A DNA stretch of 49,237 nucleotides from Flavobacteriaceae bacterium. GTDB lineage: Bacteria > Bacteroidota > Bacteroidia > Flavobacteriales > Flavobacteriaceae. Position 1 is the stretch's first letter. Each line of letters opens with the position of its first letter. This document shows, one piece after another, positions 2,795 through 33,573 of the stretch. The stretch is taken from positions 1-49,237 of the forward strand of contig JAIUMH010000005.1 of assembly GCA_022565635.1 (NCBI GenBank). Direction: 5' to 3'. The notes beneath the pieces were generated by a model that saw nothing but the letters and a program-made list of their open reading frames with translations, had not been told where the DNA came from and searched no databases. The translations under genes were made by a program, and so were the position numbers.

Positions 2795-4054
2795 TTATTT
2801 AACTTCTTGATTTTCTAATTCAAAAACCTTATTTAAAAGAGCTACAGTGTCTTCTGTAGAACCGTTAGCACCTCTTAAGTGAGAAGCAAAACTTCTAGTT
2901 ATTTTATGGATTATCCTATCTGAGATGATTTTTGCTTGTTCCTCATCAAAAGCTTCATATTTTTTTGACTGGTAATCTAACTCTTCATTTTTGAACAACT
3001 CAAACTTTTCTTTAAGCGCCTTAATGGTAGGAGCAAATTTTCTTGTGTCAAGCCATTCGTAAAATTCAGATTTCACTTCTTCAATAATAGCTTCGGCTTG
3101 TGGAATATATTTTTTTCTTTTTGAAAGTGTCTCATCGGTTAATCTAGATAAATGATCCATGTGTAAAAGATTTACATTATCCAAATCGCTCACATCATCG
3201 TTTACATTCTTAGGAATAGACAAATCCAAAATCAACAACTCTTTGTTGGTGTGGATAAGCTCCTTAGTAATTGTAGGATGTTGAGCCCCTGTAGCAACAA
3301 TTAAAATATCCGATTTTCTAATTTCAGCTTGTAATTCAGAAAAATCCTTTACCTCCAAATTAAACTTCCCTGCAACTTCTTCAGCCTTATCTTTTGTACG
3401 ATTAATTAAGGTAATATTTTTATTGTGGGTATGCTTGACAAGATTTTCACAGGTATTTCTTCCAATTTTTCCAGTTCCAAATAATAAAATATTCTTTTTC
3501 GTAGTAAAGTCAATTCTATCCATGATGTATTGAACTGAAGCAAATGATACTGAAGTTGCTCCAGAAGAAAGAGCCGTTTCATTTTTAATTCTACGACTAG
3601 TTTGAATTACAGAATTAAACAAACGCTCTAAAAAAGCATTAGACATACCGCGTTTTTTAGATAGTATAAAAGCTGACTTCATCTGAGAAATAATCTCAAA
3701 ATCTCCTAAAATCTGGCTATCTAAACCGCCACCAACTCTAAACATGTGCGCTATAGCTAAATCATCTTTATAAATATAACCCACATTTTTAAAAGTTTCT
3801 TTAGTGCCAAGACTATGTGCGCAAAGCAAATCAATAAGCGTGCTCACATCATTACTAAAACCGTAGAGCTCAGTGCGGTTACAAGTTGAAGTAACAACAA
3901 TAGCATCTAACCCTTTTTGCTTGGCGTCTTCCAGCAATGCATTTCTTTGAGCCAAACTCAAACTAAACTTTCCACGCACCACGGCATCTGCTTTTTCATA
4001 GCTAAGGCCTACGGCAAAAAAACTTTTAAACTTTGATACTTGATACATTTGCAT
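2795..4054 (-). CDS. hemA: Glutamyl-tRNA reductase
   Basis: It catalyses NADPH-dependent reduction of glutamyl-tRNA(Glu) to glutamate-1-semialdehyde, the first committed step of C5 haem biosynthesis. The 419-residue length is normal. The catalytic domain carries TSTCNRTELYGF with the nucleophile Cys58. DFEIISQMKSAF corresponds to the GExQIxGQxK segment, and the NADPH domain carries LLFGTGKIGRNTCENL. The C-terminal dimerisation helix ends in SHLRGANGS. Two ATGs (4054 and 4048) are both possible starts. It is divergent from an AraC-family gene with a 190-base shared upstream region that contains a perfect palindrome. Haem made by this route is needed by the ctaB, cytochrome oxidase and P450 products encoded elsewhere in the window. 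Confidence 0.97.
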   Translation of the reverse strand: MQMYQVSKFKSFFAVGLSYEKADAVVRGKFSLSLAQRNALLEDAKQKGLDAIVVTSTCNRTELYGFSNDVSTLIDLLCAHSLGTKETFKNVGYIYKDDLAIAHMFRVGGGLDSQILGDFEIISQMKSAFILSKKRGMSNAFLERLFNSVIQTSRRIKNETALSSGATSVSFASVQYIMDRIDFTTKKNILLFGTGKIGRNTCENLVKHTHNKNITLINRTKDKAEEVAGKFNLEVKDFSELQAEIRKSDILIVATGAQHPTITKELIHTNKELLILDLSIPKNVNDDVSDLDNVNLLHMDHLSRLTDETLSKRKKYIPQAEAIIEEVKSEFYEWLDTRKFAPTIKALKEKFELFKNEELDYQSKKYEAFDEEQAKIISDRIIHKITRSFASHLRGANGSTEDTVALLNKVFELENQEVK

Positions 4055-4149
4055 GTATTATAATTTTGCCACAAAAATATATCATAAGCTTATTTTAAAA
4101 TAACGCTCAAAGTTCTTTTTGTATTGAAAAAAGGTTTTTCTTTGAATTT

Positions 4150-4181
4150 ATGATAAATATCATCTATATGGCTTAAATTTG
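4150..4181 (+). promoter_or_regulatory. Palindrome and -7-like box between hemA and the AraC gene
   Basis: ATGATAAATATCAT (4150-4163) is a 14-base sequence with perfect 6-base arms. Eleven bases later, TAAATTTG (4174-4181) matches the Bacteroidetes -7 consensus TAnnTTTG, pointing toward the AraC-family gene. The palindrome would cover the spacer or -33 region of that promoter and is well placed to act as an operator for either divergent gene. No TTG is seen at the usual -33 spacing. Confidence 0.4.
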
Positions 4182-4244
4182 CCTTATAGCAGGGCATACA
4201 AAGAAGTTTAATTAGAACGATTCTAAATAAAAACAAGATTTAAA

Positions 4245-5129
4245 ATGATTCATCAAGAGAAAAATATCGCTATAAGTTCAGACCATTTATTTGAAGTGAA
4301 TGAAGATTTCACTTTATTACACATCAAAAACAATTCTTCAGATAATCAGTGTTTTACCCACCCAATTGATGAAAATTACATTCAATTTCACTTTTGCGTG
4401 AAAGGGAAAATTAAATTCAATTTTAATCAAGGTCAATACAGTATGGATATCCTTGAAGATCAATCCTTGTTACTTTATAATCCCGAACGCGGATTACCAA
4501 TTAACTTAGAAGTTTATCAAGATTCTTGGTTTGTTAGTATTTTGGTATCCATTAAAAAATTGCACGAACTTTTTTCAAGAGAAGCCTCTTATATTGATTT
4601 TCTTACGGATGAAAATCGAGACAAAAAATACTATAAACAAGGTGACATATCTCCAGCCATGGCCGTTGTTTTAAGCCAGATTCTTAACTTTAACATGCAT
4701 GCATCAGTCAAAGAAATTTACTTAAAAGGCAAGGCTTATGAGTTATTAGGTTTGTTTTTTAATCGCCCTGAAGAAGCCGACATAGAACAATGTCCGTTTT
4801 TAGACGATGAGGACAATGTAAAAAAAATAAAATTAGCCAAAGAAATCATTATTCAGCGAATGGTTAATCCTCCAAGTTTAGGTGAACTTGCTGAAGAAGT
4901 TGGTCTAAGTCTAAAAAAATTAAAAGAAGGCTTCAAAGAAATTTACGGAGACACCGTGTATTCCTTTTTATTAGATTACAAAATGGATTTTGCAAGAAAG
5001 TTACTAGAACGCGGAAAACACAATGTGAATGAAGTAGGCTTAACTGTTGGTTACAGTACTTCAAGTCATTTTATTGCAGCCTTTAAAAAGAAATTTGGTA
5101 CCACACCAAAAAAATACATCCAAGATTAA
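4245..5129 (+). CDS. AraC-family transcriptional regulator
   Basis: This 294-residue protein has an N-terminal sensory part (about residues 1-180) and a C-terminal AraC-type double helix-turn-helix (about 195-294). The second HTH signature is clear in NVNEVGLTVGYSTSSHFIAAFKKKFGTTPKKY, described here by its residues near 262-292. The ligand is not evident. Its position opposite hemA makes a role in haem or iron-related control plausible, but that is context only. A palindrome upstream could be its own site. The recX start codon lies 7 bases after the stop, so the two are probably co-transcribed. Confidence 0.92.
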   Translation: MIHQEKNIAISSDHLFEVNEDFTLLHIKNNSSDNQCFTHPIDENYIQFHFCVKGKIKFNFNQGQYSMDILEDQSLLLYNPERGLPINLEVYQDSWFVSILVSIKKLHELFSREASYIDFLTDENRDKKYYKQGDISPAMAVVLSQILNFNMHASVKEIYLKGKAYELLGLFFNRPEEADIEQCPFLDDEDNVKKIKLAKEIIIQRMVNPPSLGELAEEVGLSLKKLKEGFKEIYGDTVYSFLLDYKMDFARKLLERGKHNVNEVGLTVGYSTSSHFIAAFKKKFGTTPKKYIQD

Positions 5130-5136
5130 AACTACA

Positions 5137-5625
5137 ATGATGAAATCTTCTGAAAAACACAAATCATACACCCTAGAAGAAGCGAAATTAAGATTAACCA
5201 AGTATTGTGCCTATCAAGACCGATGCCACTTTGAAGTAGAACAAAAACTGAAGGAGATGCGAATGATCCCTTTAGCCCAAGAAGAAATCATTATTTTTTT
5301 GATGCAGGAAGGCTTTTTAAATGAGGAACGATTTACTAGAAGTTTTATAAGGGGAAAATTTTATTTTAAGAAATGGGGAAAAAATAAGATTACGCAACAC
5401 CTAAAATCAAAAAAAATACCTCAGAGTTTAATCCACTTATGCATGGATGAGATTGATTCTGCCGATTATTTTACTACCTGCCTTCAATTAGCAGAAAAAA
5501 AGCTTGGTCAACTTCAGGGCCAACTGACGTTAAAAAACCAACAAAAAATTCAATCTTACCTTTATCAAAAAGGCTACGAAAGCTCACTGATTTATGAATG
5601 TTTAAATGAGTTGAAGGAGAAATGA
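5137..5625 (+). CDS. recX: RecX regulatory protein
   Basis: RecX binds RecA filaments and limits their activity. The frame is open back into the AraC-family gene, but the protein most likely starts at one of two adjacent ATGs, 5137 or 5140, just after that gene's stop, giving about 162 residues. The sequence shows the three-helix RecX repeats: an N-terminal LTKYCAYQDRCHFEVEQKL, a middle FLNEERFTRSFIRGKFYFKKWGK with the conserved basic patch, and a C-terminal KIQSYLYQKGYESSLIYECL. RecR, RuvA and RuvB are also encoded in this window but in other transcription units. Confidence 0.9.
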   Translation: MMKSSEKHKSYTLEEAKLRLTKYCAYQDRCHFEVEQKLKEMRMIPLAQEEIIIFLMQEGFLNEERFTRSFIRGKFYFKKWGKNKITQHLKSKKIPQSLIHLCMDEIDSADYFTTCLQLAEKKLGQLQGQLTLKNQQKIQSYLYQKGYESSLIYECLNELKEK

Positions 5626-5656
5626 GAATTGATGTTTGAAATAATAAATGTATGAG

Positions 5657-5710
5657 TTTGGATGTTTAAATATTTAAATTCTTAGCGCCTTGGCGTCTTT
5701 GCGAGCAAAA
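5657..5710. repeat. Degenerate intergenic repeat, copy 2
   Basis: This is the second copy of the repeat at 45-110, with the blocks TTGGATGTT, TTAAATT, CTTAGCGCCTTGGCGTCTTTG and GAGCAAAA in the same order. The 286-base gap between recX and the serine hydrolase gene contains this copy. It also has three GATGTTTRA-type words (5631, 5661 and 5822) and an ACTGTGTACTTTGTGCATTAATGG stretch near 5731, which I also associate from memory with flavobacterial intergenic filler. No gene is seen. Confidence 0.5.
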
Positions 5711-5846
5711 ATCAATTTTGAATTAATATAACTGTGTACTTTGTGCATTAATGGTGATAAATGAGTAAAGGATTTAGGGCCGATGGCGGAGATTTTTTTA
5801 GATTGATAGGTTAGAGGTTGGGATGTTTGAGAAAAGAGAGGTTGAA

Positions 5847-5876
5847 ATACCAGAAACAAGAAATTTATACCAGAAA
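5847..5876 (+). promoter_or_regulatory. Direct repeat ATACCAGAAA spaced 20 bases
   Basis: ATACCAGAAA occurs at 5847-5856 and again at 5867-5876, a spacing of exactly 20 bases (about two helical turns), 35 bases before the serine hydrolase start codon. That geometry suits a dimeric regulator binding on one face of the DNA, but no regulator is known. Confidence 0.3.
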
Positions 5877-5911
5877 TCATTACCTTAGCATAAAAATAAA
5901 AATTTGAGAAA

Positions 5912-28436: not shown

Positions 28437-30518
28437 TTAATAGTCAAAATACCAATTGAACACATCTGTTCTAAATCCAAAGTTCACCCAAGTTGTACTT
28501 CTATCAAAATTCATTAAATTAGACTGAGCTATATCAAATTCTCTATGAATAATATTTACATAAATTTTTAAGTTTGTAGTTGGGTTCACCAAGTAGCCTA
28601 TCTCAATTTCTCCATAATAAGAGTTTGCTCTATTGCCTTGACCAATATTAATGTTATTATCACCTACTCTCACTCTCTCATCTCCAAAAAGATCACTACC
28701 ATAATAAGGGTTGCTATCACTATTTGTCTCAAACCCACGCTCTCCAAAAATAAATTTTGTGTGGCCATAAAACCTGTCTTTTCTATACCTAGCCAACAAC
28801 ATAATTTCTCTAAAGTTTGCCCCCCATAAATGCGCCAAAGACTGATTATTATGTGTGTAGTGTTGCGTTAAAGAAAAATGAGAATAAGTATAGGGTCTCA
28901 CTTGATTGTATTCAAGCTGGAGGAGTAAGTTATCAACTTTAAAAGCATCGTAATATTTCATTCCTAATTGCAAACCAAACTTGTTTCTCCAACTTTTATC
29001 CATTGCAGCAACATCTCCAACGGCAAGCTCATCAATAAGCCATTGACCGTAAGTATTTATTTTATCAGACCATTTATATTTATAACTCAAACCAATAGTT
29101 GATTTACCTGAACGCGAACCAAGTGAATACTCAGCCATGTTCCAAAACAAAAGTGGGTTTACAAAATTCCAATCAAAACCTCTTTCCGGTTCGCTTGCAA
29201 ACATTACCGACTCAAACAAGCCTAAAGTTAAACGCTTATTAACGTTATAACTTAAATAATGTATGGCATTATATTTTGGCAAAAATGAGCCTTCTGCTGT
29301 TCTGTTATTTAAATTTCTTAAGGATTGATAAATATTTGTGTACTTTATTTTCCAAAATGTAGTTTCAACCTTAAAATAAGCATTTGGACTGGCATTATCA
29401 CTAAGAAACAAAGATCTATACCCATCCCCTATAAAATTGTTACCAGACCCAAACTCAAGGTTTAAAAAATCGGTAGCATCATAGTTAAGATAACCAATGG
29501 TTACTGGGTAATCAAAAGAGGAACCCCTAAATGATTCCCCTAGTCCTCTACCAGGAACCATTACTAATTCAGAACCTTCTGGCCCTAAACTCCTGGCAAA
29601 ATCATTGTAATAACCAGCAAACTTACCTTGACTTTCAAAAACTGTTGCGTAGAAGTTTAACTTATCTCCTAATCCACCTTGAAAAATACCAGCTCTAGTG
29701 TTATTGTAAGTCGTAAAGTTTTCTTCAAAATCTCTACCTACTTGTAAATCTGCGGCAATATCTACAGTAAACCAATAATCTTCAGCCTCGAACCGAGCCG
29801 TATTTTCATTAAATAATTTCTTGCCAAACCAAGTTCTTTTATCCAGAGCCAAATCTTCTCTTTCTTGCCTAAAATCGTAATATTTTTGAATCTCACTATA
29901 CCTATAAGGCTTAGTTGCTGTATGTGCGTTAGTTCCAATTTTGTTCATTTCAGAATCCATACGACTGTACAATTCATGAGAAAACTGAACATTTAAATTA
30001 CTTCTTGTTTGAGGATCTGTAAATTTCTTTGATTGAATTTGATCATACTCTTCTCTCAATAACTTCTGTTGAGCAGTAATAATTGGGTCTTGTGACTTTA
30101 AATCTTCAGAAGCATCTTGAAAAGGTAAATTAATAGATAACCTCATTTGAAAATCTGTAGGCCTTGAATTATAGGTAGCGGGATGAATTGCAGGCAACTT
30201 ATTAAATGCACTATGAATGGAGTCTATCACTTCAGCAAATTTTGACTCGACATAAATTACATTAAAAACTCCTTTTTTATTCACATCAAATATAACTACT
30301 ACTCTTTCTTCTCTATTGTTCTCTTCAAAAGAAGCTGGAAGTTGAAAATTAGCTTTTAGAAGTTTAAACAGCTCACTATTGAAACACTTTTTTTCGTCTT
30401 CTGTAACTTCACAATTTTCAAAAACCGGCAGGCTTTCATTAGACTGAACTGATGTAGCAGCTTGACTAAAAACACTCAAGCTAAATAATATTGTTATAAA
30501 AAAGAAAAAAAACCTCAT
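28437..30518 (-). CDS. remB: Gliding motility protein RemB with TonB-like N-terminal module
   Basis: This 693-residue exported protein has a signal peptide of about 19 residues (a run of Phe, then VFSQA). Residues 30-135 form a TonB-C-terminal-like module with PVFENCE (Cys36), a second Cys45 and LPAIHPA near 110. The rest, from about 190 on, is rich in aromatic, alternating segments ending FGFRTDVFNWYFDY, consistent with an outer-membrane beta-barrel. From memory, remB of Flavobacterium johnsoniae lies a few genes downstream of sprA, as here, and contributes to gliding and surface movement. Its first codons form the descending arm and T-tract of a hairpin. Confidence 0.75.
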   Translation of the reverse strand: MRFFFFFITILFSLSVFSQAATSVQSNESLPVFENCEVTEDEKKCFNSELFKLLKANFQLPASFEENNREERVVVIFDVNKKGVFNVIYVESKFAEVIDSIHSAFNKLPAIHPATYNSRPTDFQMRLSINLPFQDASEDLKSQDPIITAQQKLLREEYDQIQSKKFTDPQTRSNLNVQFSHELYSRMDSEMNKIGTNAHTATKPYRYSEIQKYYDFRQEREDLALDKRTWFGKKLFNENTARFEAEDYWFTVDIAADLQVGRDFEENFTTYNNTRAGIFQGGLGDKLNFYATVFESQGKFAGYYNDFARSLGPEGSELVMVPGRGLGESFRGSSFDYPVTIGYLNYDATDFLNLEFGSGNNFIGDGYRSLFLSDNASPNAYFKVETTFWKIKYTNIYQSLRNLNNRTAEGSFLPKYNAIHYLSYNVNKRLTLGLFESVMFASEPERGFDWNFVNPLLFWNMAEYSLGSRSGKSTIGLSYKYKWSDKINTYGQWLIDELAVGDVAAMDKSWRNKFGLQLGMKYYDAFKVDNLLLQLEYNQVRPYTYSHFSLTQHYTHNNQSLAHLWGANFREIMLLARYRKDRFYGHTKFIFGERGFETNSDSNPYYGSDLFGDERVRVGDNNINIGQGNRANSYYGEIEIGYLVNPTTNLKIYVNIIHREFDIAQSNLMNFDRSTTWVNFGFRTDVFNWYFDY

Positions 30519-30560
30519 TTTATATTTTTTAGCAAATTAAACTAAAAAAAATGAGGTTTT
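30509..30560 (-). terminator. Terminator-like hairpin containing the remB start codon
   Basis: On the minus strand, AAAACCTCAT pairs with ATGAGGTTTT. The second arm is the remB start codon and second codon, and the following Phe codons (TTT TTT TTC TTT TTT) form the T-tract. It lies 21 bases past the stop of the small secreted protein gene. It could end that transcript, hide the remB start, or both. Confidence 0.6.
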
Positions 30561-30580
30561 CATATTTTAAAAAGTAGAAT

Positions 30581-31078
30581 TTAGTTGACTTGATACTTCT
30601 GGGTTGATTCTTCATCAAAAGTGAAATCTAAATCAATTTGAATATCTACCTTATTTTTAACATTAATCTGATTCCTTTCCAGCTCAATTTGGACTTTAAA
30701 TCTCAAATCTATAGGTCTTTCTATAGAGTTAAGAGCAGGCTTTAGCTTTGGAAATTGCTGTATGGTTTTAACAAAAGGAATAAATATTCTACTTTCTGCT
30801 GTTGAAAAATCAGCAATTGAAATATTACCTCTTCTATCCACATCAATAAATGCTTCAAATTGCACTTCATACTTTTGATCAAAGGCTAGTTCATTTTTTA
30901 AATAGCCTTCTTTCATCAATCTTATAAATTCTGATTGAAAGCATGCGTTTCTATCTCTATCATCAGATTCACACACTTCAAATTTAGGAAGTTGTTGAAT
31001 TTGATTGTGTTCATTGAGTTGTGCACTTGCAGAAACAAAAAAAAGACCAATAATGGTCATTAAAAAATATCTTCTCAT
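30581..31078 (-). CDS. Secreted protein with TonB-C-terminal-like module
   Basis: This 165-residue protein has a signal peptide (about residues 1-19, ending VSASAQ) and essentially one domain. PKFEVCE (Cys36), a second Cys46, VQFEAFIDVDRRGNISIADF near 70-89, then FPKLKPALN and a final beta strand match in order the module found at the start of RemB and at the end of both TonB proteins here. It has no membrane anchor and no Pro-rich linker, so it would float in the periplasm. Function unknown; it may dock to the same partners as the TonB domains. It lies between tonB and remB with hairpins on both sides. Confidence 0.75.
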   Translation of the reverse strand: MRRYFLMTIIGLFFVSASAQLNEHNQIQQLPKFEVCESDDRDRNACFQSEFIRLMKEGYLKNELAFDQKYEVQFEAFIDVDRRGNISIADFSTAESRIFIPFVKTIQQFPKLKPALNSIERPIDLRFKVQIELERNQINVKNKVDIQIDLDFTFDEESTQKYQVN

Positions 31079-31096
31079 TATGTAGGGGTATTAAAA

Positions 31097-31120
31097 ACCC
31101 GAGGCTGAATAACCTCGGGG
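31097..31120 (-). terminator. Hairpin terminator after the Pro-rich tonB gene
   Basis: CCCGAGG pairs with CCTCGGG around an 8-base loop. On the minus strand it is followed by GTTTTTAA. It lies 20 bases past the tonB stop. Confidence 0.75.
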
Positions 31121-31139
31121 ATAAATAATCTAAATTTTA

Positions 31140-31865
31140 TTAATCTTGAATTTGGAAAACGATTGGTAAATTGTAAGATACCCTAACGGCTCTACCTCTC
31201 TGTTTACCAGGTTTCATGCTTGGTAATTTATTAACTACACGCTCTCCTTCTTTGGTTAATCTAGGGTGTTGCGACCTACCTCTAACGTCAACAATGTTTC
31301 CGTTTTGATCAATTACAAAAGTGATATAAACACGATTTACACCCGTAAGTCCTAAATCTCTACCAATACTAGTATCAAATTTTTTATTCACAAACTTCTG
31401 AATTTTATCCTGCATGCATTGCTTTCTTGCATCGTTTGTTTTTTCTTTTTCACAACCTGGAAAAACAGGAACATCAGAAATACTAGCAAAAGGAACTTCT
31501 TCAATTACATCATCAGAACCTATATCAGCTACCTCATCAATTTCAACAATTTCATCATCAAGATCAATTTCAGTTTCTTCTATTTCAACTTCTTCTTCTT
31601 CAGAATCATCTTCAATAATTTCTATGATTTCTGGTGCTGGAGGTGGTGGAGGTGGTGGTGGCGGTGCTTGAATCATTTCTGTAATTGGCACTTCCTCATC
31701 ATCTAAAAGATTCATTTCTACAATTTCGTCTTCATACTCAACCTTATCGTAAGTCTTCCATTCAATCATTACATAAGAGGTTGCAAGCATAAAAACTAAA
31801 CCGAGCTGAAAGAATAAAAAACTCTTTTTGCCGATGTTTGCTTTTTCTGATTTTTTAGGTTTCAT
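31140..31865 (-). CDS. Energy transducer TonB, Pro-rich linker
   Basis: This 241-residue TonB-family protein has a single inner-membrane anchor at about residues 15-35. A periplasmic linker with a nine-Pro run (residues 68-76) comes before a long acidic stretch, and the C-terminal TonB domain starts near residue 125. That domain carries VPVFPGCE (Cys138), Cys150, RVYITFVIDQNGNIVDV and ends YNLPIVFQ. TonB passes proton-motive force energy from ExbBD to outer-membrane receptors. No exbB/exbD is in the window. A 92-base gap separates it from a second TonB-like gene upstream. Confidence 0.92.
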   Translation of the reverse strand: MKPKKSEKANIGKKSFLFFQLGLVFMLATSYVMIEWKTYDKVEYEDEIVEMNLLDDEEVPITEMIQAPPPPPPPPPAPEIIEIIEDDSEEEEVEIEETEIDLDDEIVEIDEVADIGSDDVIEEVPFASISDVPVFPGCEKEKTNDARKQCMQDKIQKFVNKKFDTSIGRDLGLTGVNRVYITFVIDQNGNIVDVRGRSQHPRLTKEGERVVNKLPSMKPGKQRGRAVRVSYNLPIVFQIQD

Positions 31866-31957
31866 AGTAATTATTTTTCAAGTGATAAAATTAATGATTT
31901 TTTTGTAAACTAAAAGTTTTAATTGGAAAATTTGAATCAAGATCAAATTAATTATTC

Positions 31958-32704
31958 TTAGTTGATCTTTACAAATATGGGTAACGAATAAAGTACTTGT
32001 ACTTTTTGCCCATTGTGTTCAGCGGGTTGAAAATTTGGTAAATTTTCAATTATCTGCTTTGTTTTATAATTTAATGACTCTGAGTTTGAGTTGGTTTTAA
32101 CCTCCACCACTTGCCCAATTTCATTAACAGTGAACTGCACGTAAATTCTTACTCCATCGTCATTTTTAGACAAATGAGAGCTTAGACGTTTACTTACTAT
32201 ATGCGCTATTTTGTTGTTCATGCAAGCTTTTTGGTCTTCTTTTGTATTTAGCATTTCACAACCTTTAAAAATAGGCGCATTACTTACACTAGCGTAAGGA
32301 ACACTTGCAATTTTTTCTACGCGAGGTAAATCATCAATATCCTCAACCCCTAAAGCAGCGTTGCTTTCAGAAGAATGAACAAACAAAACACTCAAATCTA
32401 TCGGATCTATTTCATCTTCTAGGTTTTCCTCAACTGTATTTTCAGATTTTTCAGGAGGTTGATGAGATGAAGCAGTTTCTTTCTTATTCATTTTTTTCTC
32501 CTTTACTTCTATAAAGTCAGAGAAAACTTCGTCTTCCTTAAACTCTGAAGCATTTAAAATGGATTTATTTGAATCTGATTTTTCTAAGGTATAATAAGTT
32601 TTATTCTCAATAAATATCAAACTTATAAATAAGACAAGTAGTAAGCTGGTAAGAAAATATAATTTCGATTTCTCTTCTGAATCTTTTTTCATTTTAAACT
32701 TCAT
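31958..32704 (-). CDS. TonB-family protein with acidic, non-Pro-rich linker
   Basis: Taking the ATG at 32704, the protein has 248 residues. The frame is open 21 codons further, to a TTG at 32767, so that longer form is possible. A membrane anchor (about residues 15-34) is followed by a charged linker without the Pro run. The C-terminal TonB module carries NAPIFKGCE (Cys149), Cys161, VRIYVQFTVNEIGQVVEV and ends LYSLPIFV. It is clearly related to the adjacent TonB, probably by duplication. The short linker may limit its reach across the periplasm. Confidence 0.85.
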   Translation of the reverse strand: MKFKMKKDSEEKSKLYFLTSLLLVLFISLIFIENKTYYTLEKSDSNKSILNASEFKEDEVFSDFIEVKEKKMNKKETASSHQPPEKSENTVEENLEDEIDPIDLSVLFVHSSESNAALGVEDIDDLPRVEKIASVPYASVSNAPIFKGCEMLNTKEDQKACMNNKIAHIVSKRLSSHLSKNDDGVRIYVQFTVNEIGQVVEVKTNSNSESLNYKTKQIIENLPNFQPAEHNGQKVQVLYSLPIFVKIN

Positions 32705-32822
32705 CTCTATTTGTTTTTGTGGTTCTACAAATGAACAAACAGCATTGGACTTTTTAGTAGTATTCAATCTTTCTTTTTTCTAGAAGAAGATTATATAAGC
32801 TAATCAACTTTAAATATTCGCT

Positions 32823-33221
32823 TTATTTATATCGCTTCAGACTTAAAGCTAAAACAAAAAGCAAAGCAAAAGAGGTTAATGCACCTAGAGAGTTAAACAA
32901 GACATCTCCCCAATCAAAAGTTCTATGATCTGTTAATGTTCCTTGTAATACTTCAATTATAATGCCAAAAAAAACAACCGTTAAAAATGCAAAAAAAGAG
33001 GTAAGTAAAAATGATTTTTTATATGTAGTATAGAGATACATGAACCATACAACAAAAAACACAAAATATTCAACAAAATGAACGTATTTGTCTGCATGAG
33101 GAATAGACACAGACGGCAAGCCATCTGTGTCCATAAAAGATAAATAAGTAATTGCAAAGCTTACAAACAAACTTGCAACTAACCAAAAATAACTATGCTT
33201 CAATATGTGCTTTATAAGCAT
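32823..33221 (-). CDS. VanZ-like family membrane protein
   Basis: This VanZ-like protein has four hydrophobic helices and the family pattern [18 protein letters not shown] (after the first helix) and [27 protein letters not shown]. The Asp/Trp motif is conserved. A longer frame reaches 33302, but it lies entirely inside gcvH; the likely start is the ATG at 33221 (132 residues), or the ATG at 33227. The start overlaps the end of gcvH by 29 bases. The function of the stand-alone VanZ-like family is not known. It keeps the order sprA, gcvH, vanZ-like, tonB, remB. Confidence 0.8.
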
Positions 33222-33573
33222 CTGCATCCAATAAGTCTGTTGCTTCTTCAGGGTTGGTAAGTTTAATTTTAATAATCCATCCCTTTCCGTAAACATCTTC
33301 ATTTACTACTTCTGGTTCATCTTCAAGTTCATCATTAAACTCAACAACTTCTCCAGAAAGAGGCATAAATAAATCTGACACCGTTTTTACCGCTTCAACA
33401 GTACCAAAGACTTCATCTTTTTCAATAGTTTCATCTAAGGTTTCTACTTCAACGTAAACAATGTCACCCAATTCACCTTGTGCAAAATCGGTAATTCCTA
33501 CGGTAGCAATATCGCCTTCAATTTTCACCCACTCGTGGTCTTTTGTGTATTTTAATTCTTGTGGTATATTCAT
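33193..33573 (-). CDS. gcvH: Glycine cleavage system H protein
   Basis: This is the lipoyl carrier of the glycine cleavage system. The 126-residue length is normal. The lipoylated lysine is Lys63 in [21 protein letters not shown], and the start [23 protein letters not shown] is the family's. The other subunits (gcvP, gcvT) are not in the window. It starts 17 bases after the sprA stop. Confidence 0.97.

What the first reader, a model, noticed from the sequence alone, without database searches (positions are those of the whole stretch)
28437..32704. Four neighbouring genes share one TonB-C-terminal-like module in four different settings
The sequence shows a common pattern in all four products: P-x-F-x-x-C-E, a second Cys 9 to 12 residues later, a strand like V-x-F-x-V-(D/N)-x-x-G, and a L-P-x-x-x-P or F-P-x-L-x-P motif. 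It occurs at the end of a TonB with a Pro-rich linker, at the end of a TonB with an acidic linker, as almost the whole of a 165-residue secreted protein, and at the N-terminus of RemB ahead of its likely barrel. A TonB-type module placed on an exported barrel, beside two transducers and a free copy, suggests a dedicated contact system linked to gliding/type IX secretion. That function is inference.
Basis: partly seen in the sequence, partly recalled or inferred. Interest (0 to 1): 0.7.

Follow-up and report, generated by a model that had tools for sequence, protein, structure and literature searches.

The report
TonB-tail module on a sugar-binding-type barrel
Four neighbouring genes beside a secretion gene really do share one TonB-tail protein module, and in one of them (RemB) the module is attached to an outer-membrane barrel of the kind that holds surface sugars in other bacteria; what that arrangement does is still untested.

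Summary
All four products carry one module, and it is a TonB C-terminal domain. The two TonBs match Pfam TonB_C directly. RemB-N and the 165-aa protein (S165) do not, but profiles and models place them with it; structure search supports S165 only weakly.

New here: RemB's barrel is Wzi-like. Two of five module-less relatives scanned pass Pfam Caps_assemb_Wzi. Module plus barrel was seen only in the window's family in a phylum survey and has one origin. Published tables list RemB as adhesin-like; no type IX secretion tail was found.

The 'dedicated contact system' is only partly supported. The order sprA-gcvH-vanZ-tonB-(tonB)-remB-ctaB is very conserved. But a TonB stays beside sprA in 38 of 40 RemB-less loci, these are the only two membrane-anchored TonBs found in the draft genome, against 19 receptor plugs, and S165 occurs in 5 of 27 genus genomes and survives one RemB loss.

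Best mechanism (inferred): RemB-N is a disulfide-stapled periplasmic docking domain, partner unknown.

The parts
28437..30518 (-). RemB (693 aa): signal-peptide-like start, TonB_C-like module, helical segment, Wzi-like outer-membrane barrel ending in FNWYFDY
   Evidence: ORF; 96 of 149 family genomes hold a match beyond the module (counted by me from the listing); AF2 model mean pLDDT 79.1; best PDB match E. coli Wzi 2ynk, E 3.3e-9; tables place F. johnsoniae sprA at Fjoh_1653 and remB at Fjoh_1657 (PMC4910214 passage); the F. johnsoniae sequence itself was not retrieved
30120..30443 (-). TonB_C-like module of RemB, residues 26-133; Cys36 and Cys45 invariant in 55 of 55 aligned orthologs
28440..29798 (-). 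RemB residues 241-693, beta-rich barrel region (Wzi-like)
30581..31078 (-). S165: 165-aa protein with a signal-peptide-like start, almost entirely one module; Cys36 and Cys46
   Evidence: profile-profile to RemB-N 98.8%; AF2 model mean pLDDT 80.9; highest Foldseek probability among the 50 listed rows is a TonB CTD, 6i97_D 0.96, but E 0.086
31140..31865 (-). TonB1 (241 aa): N-terminal hydrophobic helix, Pro-rich and acidic linker, TonB_C domain
   Evidence: PF03544 33.5 bits, cut-off 24.6; groups with the first TonB after vanZ of related genomes
31143..31505 (-). TonB1 C-terminal module, residues 121-241
31958..32704 (-). TonB2: divergent paralog with an acidic, Pro-poor linker and TonB_C domain (ORF as listed opens at TTG 32767)
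   Evidence: PF03544 25.6 bits, cut-off 24.6; in a 12-row set of last TonBs at 97/86, 82/95, not resolved
31961..32314 (-). TonB2 C-terminal module
32823..33302 (-). VanZ-like gene, conserved neighbour
   Evidence: PF04892 39.1 bits; present in 78 of 78 and 72 of 72 RemB-holding loci with SprA
33193..33573 (-). gcvH, conserved neighbour
   Evidence: PF01597 149.6 bits
33591..40865 (-). sprA, type IX translocon; anchor of the conserved gene order
   Evidence: TIGR04189 2694 bits
27419..28321 (-). UbiA/ctaB-like gene that closes the conserved cluster
   Evidence: PF01040 201.5 bits

Best explanation
Shown by sequence and model: the four genes carry one TonB C-terminal (TonB_C) module with a fixed pair of cysteines. 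Two of them are TonB energy transducers. RemB is a Wzi-like outer-membrane barrel with the module between its signal peptide and the barrel. S165 is a stand-alone module with a signal peptide. Inferred: the module of RemB lies in the periplasm under the barrel, stapled by a Cys36-Cys45 disulfide, and serves as a docking domain. It ties a barrel that probably binds or anchors surface polysaccharide to something below it, either peptidoglycan or the C-terminal domain of TonB1 or TonB2. TonB1 is probably the cell's general energy transducer rather than one dedicated to RemB. S165 is a lineage-limited soluble version that could compete for or modulate the same contact. My confidence is about 0.9 in the anatomy, about 0.35 in the docking role, and lower for any one partner.
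For: TonB_C identity: (34 of 55 RemBs match PF03544 at E up to 0.1, best 4.2e-6; the window's RemB is not among them). Fold: alpha-beta-beta-alpha-beta order in both models, with TonB CTDs of P. aeruginosa, H. pylori and E. coli among the S165 matches (probability 0.96, 0.75, 0.75). Wzi-like barrel: and (PF14052 over its cut-off in 2 relatives of 5 scanned, just below in 1, none in 2). Fusion seen in the family only: module and barrel stand together in 15 of 19 family genomes with a match and in no listed match outside the family; a barrel-only relative exists in G128 away from sprA. One origin of RemB-N: 98/99 and 99/100. Conserved cysteines. Conserved gene order. Two or more TonBs in 67 of 78 RemB-holding loci against 11 of 33 without. 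TonB1 probably general.
Against: No interaction, localisation or phenotype was tested. In the S165 Foldseek search no row reaches E 0.001 (best TonB row 0.086), and three kinesin rows rank above it by E-value, with probability at most 0.38. The S165 model used RemB-N rows as its alignment, so it is not independent. RemB-N was not searched alone against structures. The window's own RemB and S165 do not reach Pfam TonB_C at E 1, and sequence profiles found no TonB in the PDB. The Wzi match has TM only 0.41 on the query, rmsd 7.5 and 12% identity, and general porins follow closely; of five neighbours scanned at four barrel-only loci, only the two at L338 are polysaccharide genes. One full RemB locus, L185, comes from a metagenome bin labelled Cytophagaceae, so the family limit is not absolute on record titles. 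The link of a second TonB with RemB is not independent: most RemB-less TonBs in the tree form one lineage (22 rows, 100/99), second TonBs need at least 6 changes of label, and two RemB-less genomes hold a TonB of the TonB2 set. Eleven of 33 RemB-less loci counted, and 14 of all 40, keep two or more TonBs.
Confidence: 0.5

Rival explanations
1. Dedicated energised contact: TonB1 or TonB2 pairs with RemB-N through their homologous C-terminal domains and moves or gates the RemB barrel for gliding or type IX secretion; S165 regulates this.
For: Near-fixed neighbourhood of sprA, TonB and RemB; a second TonB is more common with RemB, uncorrected for kinship; homologous modules.
Against: A TonB remains without RemB in 38 of 40 loci; 53 of 149 family genomes have no RemB match beyond the module although 50 of those have SprA and 148 of the 149 ring for GldJ; only two membrane-anchored TonBs were found for 19 plugs over the cut-off.
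Confidence: 0.2
2. The module has no partner: it is a folded spacer or barrel plug left over from a gene fusion with a neighbouring tonB, kept for stability of RemB.
For: RemB is missing or decayed in 5 of 27 genus genomes (one of them 79% complete) and in 53 of 149 family genomes; the helical segment after the module may already be the Wzi-type plug.
Against: Cys36, Cys45 and Gly83 are invariant in 55 of 55 orthologs, and free-standing copies keep both Cys, which argues for constraint on the fold itself.
Confidence: 0.25
3. The cysteines make the module a redox attachment to the GldK track, as in SprF and PorG.
For: SprF and PorG are disulfide-bonded to GldK Cys343 in F. johnsoniae (PMC12635249, abstract and passages seen); RemB has two invariant Cys in the module.
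Against: The same Cys pair is in 349 of 359 TonB-class ORFs by pattern and in the other ten by eye, so it is a property of the module; spacing is 9-12, not C-x-C; a term search of the paper's main text gives 0 for RemB and TonB.
Confidence: 0.07
4. S165 descends from a duplicated RemB N-terminus and is a decoy or a stand-alone copy; alternatively it came from a free module.
For: Closest profile is RemB-N (98.8% against 94.6% for TonB); it sits next to RemB in 4 of 5 genomes.
Against: Trees do not settle it: S165 with RemB-N p-AU 0.602, with TonB 0.495, with the free modules already one side at 67/89.
Confidence: 0.35

Closest known systems
TonB C-terminal domain (Pfam PF03544; solved CTDs 6i97_D, 6sly, 1xx3)
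   Same: alpha-beta-beta-alpha-beta order, the strand-G and LPxxxP signature, profile similarity, and a weak structural match for S165
   Different: In RemB and S165 the module has no membrane helix or linker before it, so it cannot itself couple to ExbB/ExbD; it carries an N-terminal Cys-pair extension common to the modules examined here
Wzi capsule-anchoring lectin barrel (Pfam PF14052; PDB 2ynk)
   Same: Best PDB match of the RemB model; 2 of 5 module-less relatives scanned pass PF14052, and one relative (L338) lies beside polysaccharide biosynthesis genes
   Different: RemB itself gives no Pfam hit, carries the extra TonB_C module, and lies beside sprA rather than capsule genes
Stand-alone and M56-fused TonB_C proteins in the same family
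   Same: Same module with the Cys pair; the one free thyA-neighbour copy scanned scores 31.3 bits, over the Pfam cut-off
   Different: No barrel; other genomic places
SprF and PorG disulfide attachment to GldK (PMC12635249)
   Same: Outer-membrane proteins of the gliding/T9SS world with functional periplasmic Cys
   Different: C-x-C in a C-tail, no TonB_C module named; RemB not mentioned in the main text

Membership tests
TonB_C module (RemB N-terminus) | Sequence-profile membership | tested here: met
   hhalign 99.2%, E 7.2e-20 against 139 TonB C-termini, shuffles at most 5.2%; 34 of 55 orthologs match PF03544 at E up to 0.1. The window's own RemB alone: no Pfam hit
TonB_C module (RemB N-terminus) | CTD fold order alpha-beta-beta-alpha-beta | tested here: met
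   H42-57, E71-79, E85-91, H95-106, E123-131 in the model; not superposed separately
TonB_C module (S165) | Sequence-profile membership | tested here: met
   hhalign 94.6% to TonB, 98.8% to RemB-N; no Pfam hit alone for S165 or for its L299 ortholog
TonB_C module (S165) | Superposes on solved TonB CTDs | tested here: inconclusive
   6i97_D probability 0.96, TM 0.56 on target and 0.38 on query, rmsd 3.3, but E 0.086; model informed by RemB-N rows
TonB energy transducer (31140 and 31958) | N-terminal membrane helix, linker, TonB_C over the Pfam cut-off | tested here: met
   33.5 and 25.6 bits against 24.6; hydrophobic N-terminal stretch read by eye from the sequence
TonB energy transducer (RemB, S165) | N-terminal membrane anchor and periplasm-spanning linker | tested here: not met
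   Signal-peptide-like start directly followed by the module, read by eye
Wzi barrel (RemB) | Wzi-like outer-membrane beta-barrel | tested here: met
   2ynk top match, E 3.3e-9, TM 0.61 on target, 0.41 on query, rmsd 7.5, 12% identity; porins follow at E 2e-8 and weaker
Wzi barrel (RemB) | PF14052 over its cut-off in RemB itself | tested here: not met
   No hit in RemB nor in the 55 aligned RemBs at E 0.1; over the cut-off only in 2 of 5 module-less relatives scanned
Wzi barrel (RemB) | Binds capsule or other surface polysaccharide | not testable with these tools
   needs a binding assay
Type IX secreted adhesin (as RemB is listed in published tables) | C-terminal type IX secretion domain | tested here: not met
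   No NCBIfam or Pfam match at E 1 for RemB; C-terminus FNWYFDY fits a BAM-inserted barrel (recalled rule)

The most novel reading that the evidence does not exclude
RemB is an energised or track-linked foot. A Wzi-type barrel that grips surface polysaccharide is coupled across the periplasm by a TonB-type domain that pairs with the TonB C-terminal domain encoded next door, so that proton-motive force (or the gliding track) acts on a polysaccharide-binding barrel instead of on a TonB-dependent transporter.
Probability: 0.13. Interest if true: 0.85.

Novelty: new variant of a known kind. Interest (0 to 1): 0.5.

Why it matters
RemB is listed with gliding motility genes as an adhesin-like product, and I found no mechanism for it in the papers seen. 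If it is a Wzi-type barrel with a TonB-tail domain, it links surface polysaccharide, the outer membrane and the energy-transduction neighbourhood of the type IX translocon, and it gives a short, removable domain on which to test this. It also shows a TonB C-terminal domain used outside a transducer, on the outer-membrane side.

Tried and rejected
Chance similarity: rejected by shuffled profiles. Single-protein Pfam/NCBIfam scans of RemB gave nothing at E 1, and S165 gave one weak unrelated NCBIfam row; profiles and the alignment-wide scan were needed. PDB sequence search with the RemB profile gave two weak unrelated rows, with the S165/RemB-N profile only an RNA-binding protein at E 0.12 and weaker, and phmmer with TonB1 gave no TonB. 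S165 origin from TonB or from RemB-N: neither rejected. GldJ as a gliding marker is useless here, since 148 of 149 genomes ring. A track-disulfide reading was set low because the Cys pair is general to the module. That the TonB left in RemB-less loci might be TonB2, which BLAST labels suggested for 12 of 40 loci, was tested by a tree: all 21 first TonBs included lie on the TonB1 side of a 97/86 branch.

Literature: searches (RemB with TonB, SprA or RemA; RemZ with SprA; Wzi with gliding; TonB C-terminal domain; locus tags Fjoh_1654-1657, 0 papers; TonB with F. johnsoniae and energy transducer). I saw listings with abstract starts, and passages of six papers; none of that describes this architecture. 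Most listed papers were not opened, and the held library lacks most subscription papers.

Rows dropped: 2 of 80 RemB-holding loci (no SprA in the stretch) and 7 of 40 RemB-less loci (no ctaB in the stretch) before the two-by-two count. I fetched 40 of the 53 RemB-less genomes, and 21 of those 40 went into the tree. The pattern count mixes unnamed and named genomes that may overlap. The bootstrap had not settled.
Full report
What was checked. The four genes lie on the - strand: RemB 28437-30518, S165 30581-31078, TonB1 31140-31865 and TonB2 31958-32767 (or from ATG 32704), followed upstream by a VanZ-like gene, gcvH and sprA (sprA 2694 bits to TIGR04189). I call the window's family Flavobacteriaceae because the named relatives are mostly so labelled; the window's own name is not given.

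The module is TonB_C. TonB1 and TonB2 pass Pfam's cut-off for PF03544 (33.5 and 25.6 bits against 24.6). RemB and S165 alone give no Pfam family at E 1. In pairwise BLASTP, S165 is close to RemB-N (1.7e-7) but weak to TonB1 (0.004-0.012) and not above chance to TonB2. With profiles, RemB-N (81 sequences) aligns to 139 TonB C-termini at 99.2%, S165 (5 sequences) at 94.6%, and S165 to RemB-N at 98.8%. Twenty column-shuffled controls for each pair reached at most 5.2%, 0.8% and 3.1%. Of 55 aligned RemBs, 34 match PF03544 at E up to 0.1, best 4.2e-6; the window's is not among them. Free modules of about 124-144 residues elsewhere in the family resemble RemB-N, and the one scanned passes the Pfam cut-off at 31.3 bits, so they bridge the two.

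Structure. The RemB model (55-row alignment, mean pLDDT 79.1) has the module at about residues 26-133 with helix 42-57, strands 71-79 and 85-91, helix 95-106 and strand 123-131, then helices, then a beta-rich region from 241 to the end. Foldseek's best PDB match is the capsule lectin barrel Wzi, 2ynk, E 3.3e-9, TM 0.61 on the target and 0.41 on the query, rmsd 7.5, 12% identity; porins such as OccD2 follow at 2e-8. The S165 model (mean pLDDT 80.9, alignment of S165 with 38 RemB N-termini) has the same order. In its PDB search no row reaches E 0.001. Kinesin motor domains fill the first three places by E-value, with probability 0.16 to 0.38 and TM 0.16-0.22. The highest probability in the 50 listed rows is the P. 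aeruginosa TonB CTD 6i97_D at 0.96 (rank 4, E 0.086, TM 0.56 on the target, 3.3 A, 75 columns), with the H. pylori and E. coli TonB CTDs at 0.75. I read this as support, not proof. RemB-N was not searched on its own.

Where the barrel comes from. In 198 Bacteroidota genomes the RemB profile matched 108. The module-plus-barrel form (match starting at profile position 15 or lower and running to the end) was in 15 of the 19 matching genomes of the window's family and genus. The listed barrel matches outside the family start at profile position 178 or later, in ORFs of mostly 500-650 aa (some matches were not listed). A record labelled Cytophagaceae, a metagenome bin, holds a full RemB (L185), so record titles do not confine it to one family. 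Of five outside relatives scanned, two pass and one just misses the cut-off of PF14052 Caps_assemb_Wzi, and two show nothing. Two neighbours at L338 are sugar transferase and polysaccharide synthesis genes; the single neighbours scanned at L351, L346 and L342 are MreC, an ABC transporter and an acetyltransferase/FemAB-like gene. Inside the family, G128 holds a 541-residue barrel-only relative away from sprA. The RemB N-termini form one clade in both trees (98/99, 99/100). So RemB is best described as a Wzi-type barrel that carries a TonB_C module of one origin and is found at the sprA locus.

Neighbourhood. RemB matches beyond the module occur in 96 of 149 family genomes (my count from the listing); 50 of the 53 others have SprA, the three without being at most 80% complete. 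In 78 of the 80 fetched RemB loci SprA lies in the same stretch, all 78 with gcvH and vanZ, and 77 of the 78 have at least one TonB. In a second set of 80 named-record loci the figures are 72 with SprA, all 72 with at least one TonB. Of 40 RemB-less loci fetched at the sprA end, 38 keep a TonB there; of the other two, one stretch is cut by the contig end and in the other nothing recognised follows sprA. BLAST labelled the first TonB of 12 of these loci as nearer the window's TonB2, so I made a tree: all 21 first TonBs included lie with all 19 first TonBs of RemB-holding genomes, opposite a 12-row set (97/86) that holds the window's TonB2, nine other rows of the same kind (last TonBs of RemB-holding genomes, and the TonB2s of two genus mates) and two from RemB-less genomes. 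Two or more TonBs occur in 67 of 78 RemB-holding and 11 of 33 RemB-less loci, Fisher p 9e-8. This is not independent evidence: 22 of the 31 RemB-less TonB rows form one set at 100/99, and second TonBs arose several times. In none of the 200 loci of these sets is any ORF best matched by S165.

S165. In the window's genus an S165 match of its own size occurs in 5 of 27 genomes, the window included. In the window and in L299, L301 and L302 it lies between TonB1 and RemB. In G157 (L300) RemB is gone, ctaB follows directly, and S165 remains. RemB is missing or decayed in 5 of 27 genus genomes: G149, G157, G164, G170 and G173. The trees do not settle whether S165 arose from RemB-N, TonB or a free module.

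TonBs. The window's 31140 TonB groups with first, short-branched TonBs of related genomes; 31958 groups with last TonBs at 97/86 and 82/95, and one search leaves it open. In the whole draft genome two searches found four TonB_C modules: these two, one at the end of an M56-type protein, and one in a 266-residue protein with a signal-peptide-like start and no TonB layout; my own profile adds a fifth, in a 184-residue lipoprotein-like frame. The genome has 20 receptor-plug matches, 19 over the cut-off, and three ExbD matches. A general role for TonB1 follows from established knowledge of TonB, if the 248-contig draft misses no other.

Cysteines. The Cys pair is invariant in 55 of 55 RemBs. By pattern it is in 349 of 359 TonB-class ORFs, 164 of 166 RemBs and 15 of 16 free modules, and the rows of these three kinds that the pattern missed have both Cys when read by eye. 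Of three long proteins with a TonB match, one passed by pattern, one by eye, and one could not be read. The pair is therefore a feature of the module, most simply an internal staple (inference).

Known work. F. johnsoniae tables give sprA as Fjoh_1653 and remB as Fjoh_1657, and list RemB as adhesin-like and under type IX secretion (PMC4910214 and PMC4891872, passages). That spacing fits this gene order. I did not retrieve the F. johnsoniae sequence. No type IX secretion domain was found in the window's RemB. The GldK disulfide paper (PMC12635249: abstract, section list and passages) and the translocon paper (PMC10994853: passages) have 0 occurrences of RemB and TonB in the main text. The T9SS review PMC5445135 has none of RemB (passages). 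Wzi as a capsule-anchoring 18-stranded barrel with a helical bundle is described in PMC9601211 (passages).

Mechanism. What is shown is anatomy, conservation and history. That RemB-N is periplasmic follows from its place between signal peptide and barrel (inference). That it docks to TonB or to peptidoglycan is inference from what TonB C-terminal domains are known to do (recalled). I put about 0.35 on a docking role, 0.2 on the dedicated energised reading, 0.25 on a passive remnant and 0.07 on a track disulfide.

Noticed in passing
L286-L295, about 4400-5900 in each locus: Small signal-peptide TonB_C-only proteins, sometimes two in tandem. In L289, where neighbours were scanned, they lie between a thymidylate synthase gene and a pair with FGE-sulfatase/DinB and histidine-methyltransferase domains (ergothioneine-like); the other loci show ORFs of the same sizes.
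   Followed up: partly
L335:774-2312, L336:1-1247, L354:795-2762 and 4032-4502: The same module at the end of M56-type peptidase-like proteins (twice in one protein of G001) and in lipoprotein-like small proteins, in the window's own genome and in G001.
   Followed up: partly
G173:C1:2351355-2353865: RemB matches there are short and run over many stop codons, as in a decayed gene.
   Followed up: no
window 32823-33573: The VanZ-like ORF as called overlaps the gcvH ORF by 110 bases; its true start is probably further downstream.
   Followed up: no
L362:3886-5511 (G128): A barrel-only RemB relative without the module inside the family, away from sprA: a possible ancestral form or a module loss.
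   Followed up: partly
L246, L248, L249, L251, L262 between TonB and ctaB: RemB-less loci with a stretch of about 1-3 kb between TonB and ctaB whose content was not identified.
   Followed up: no
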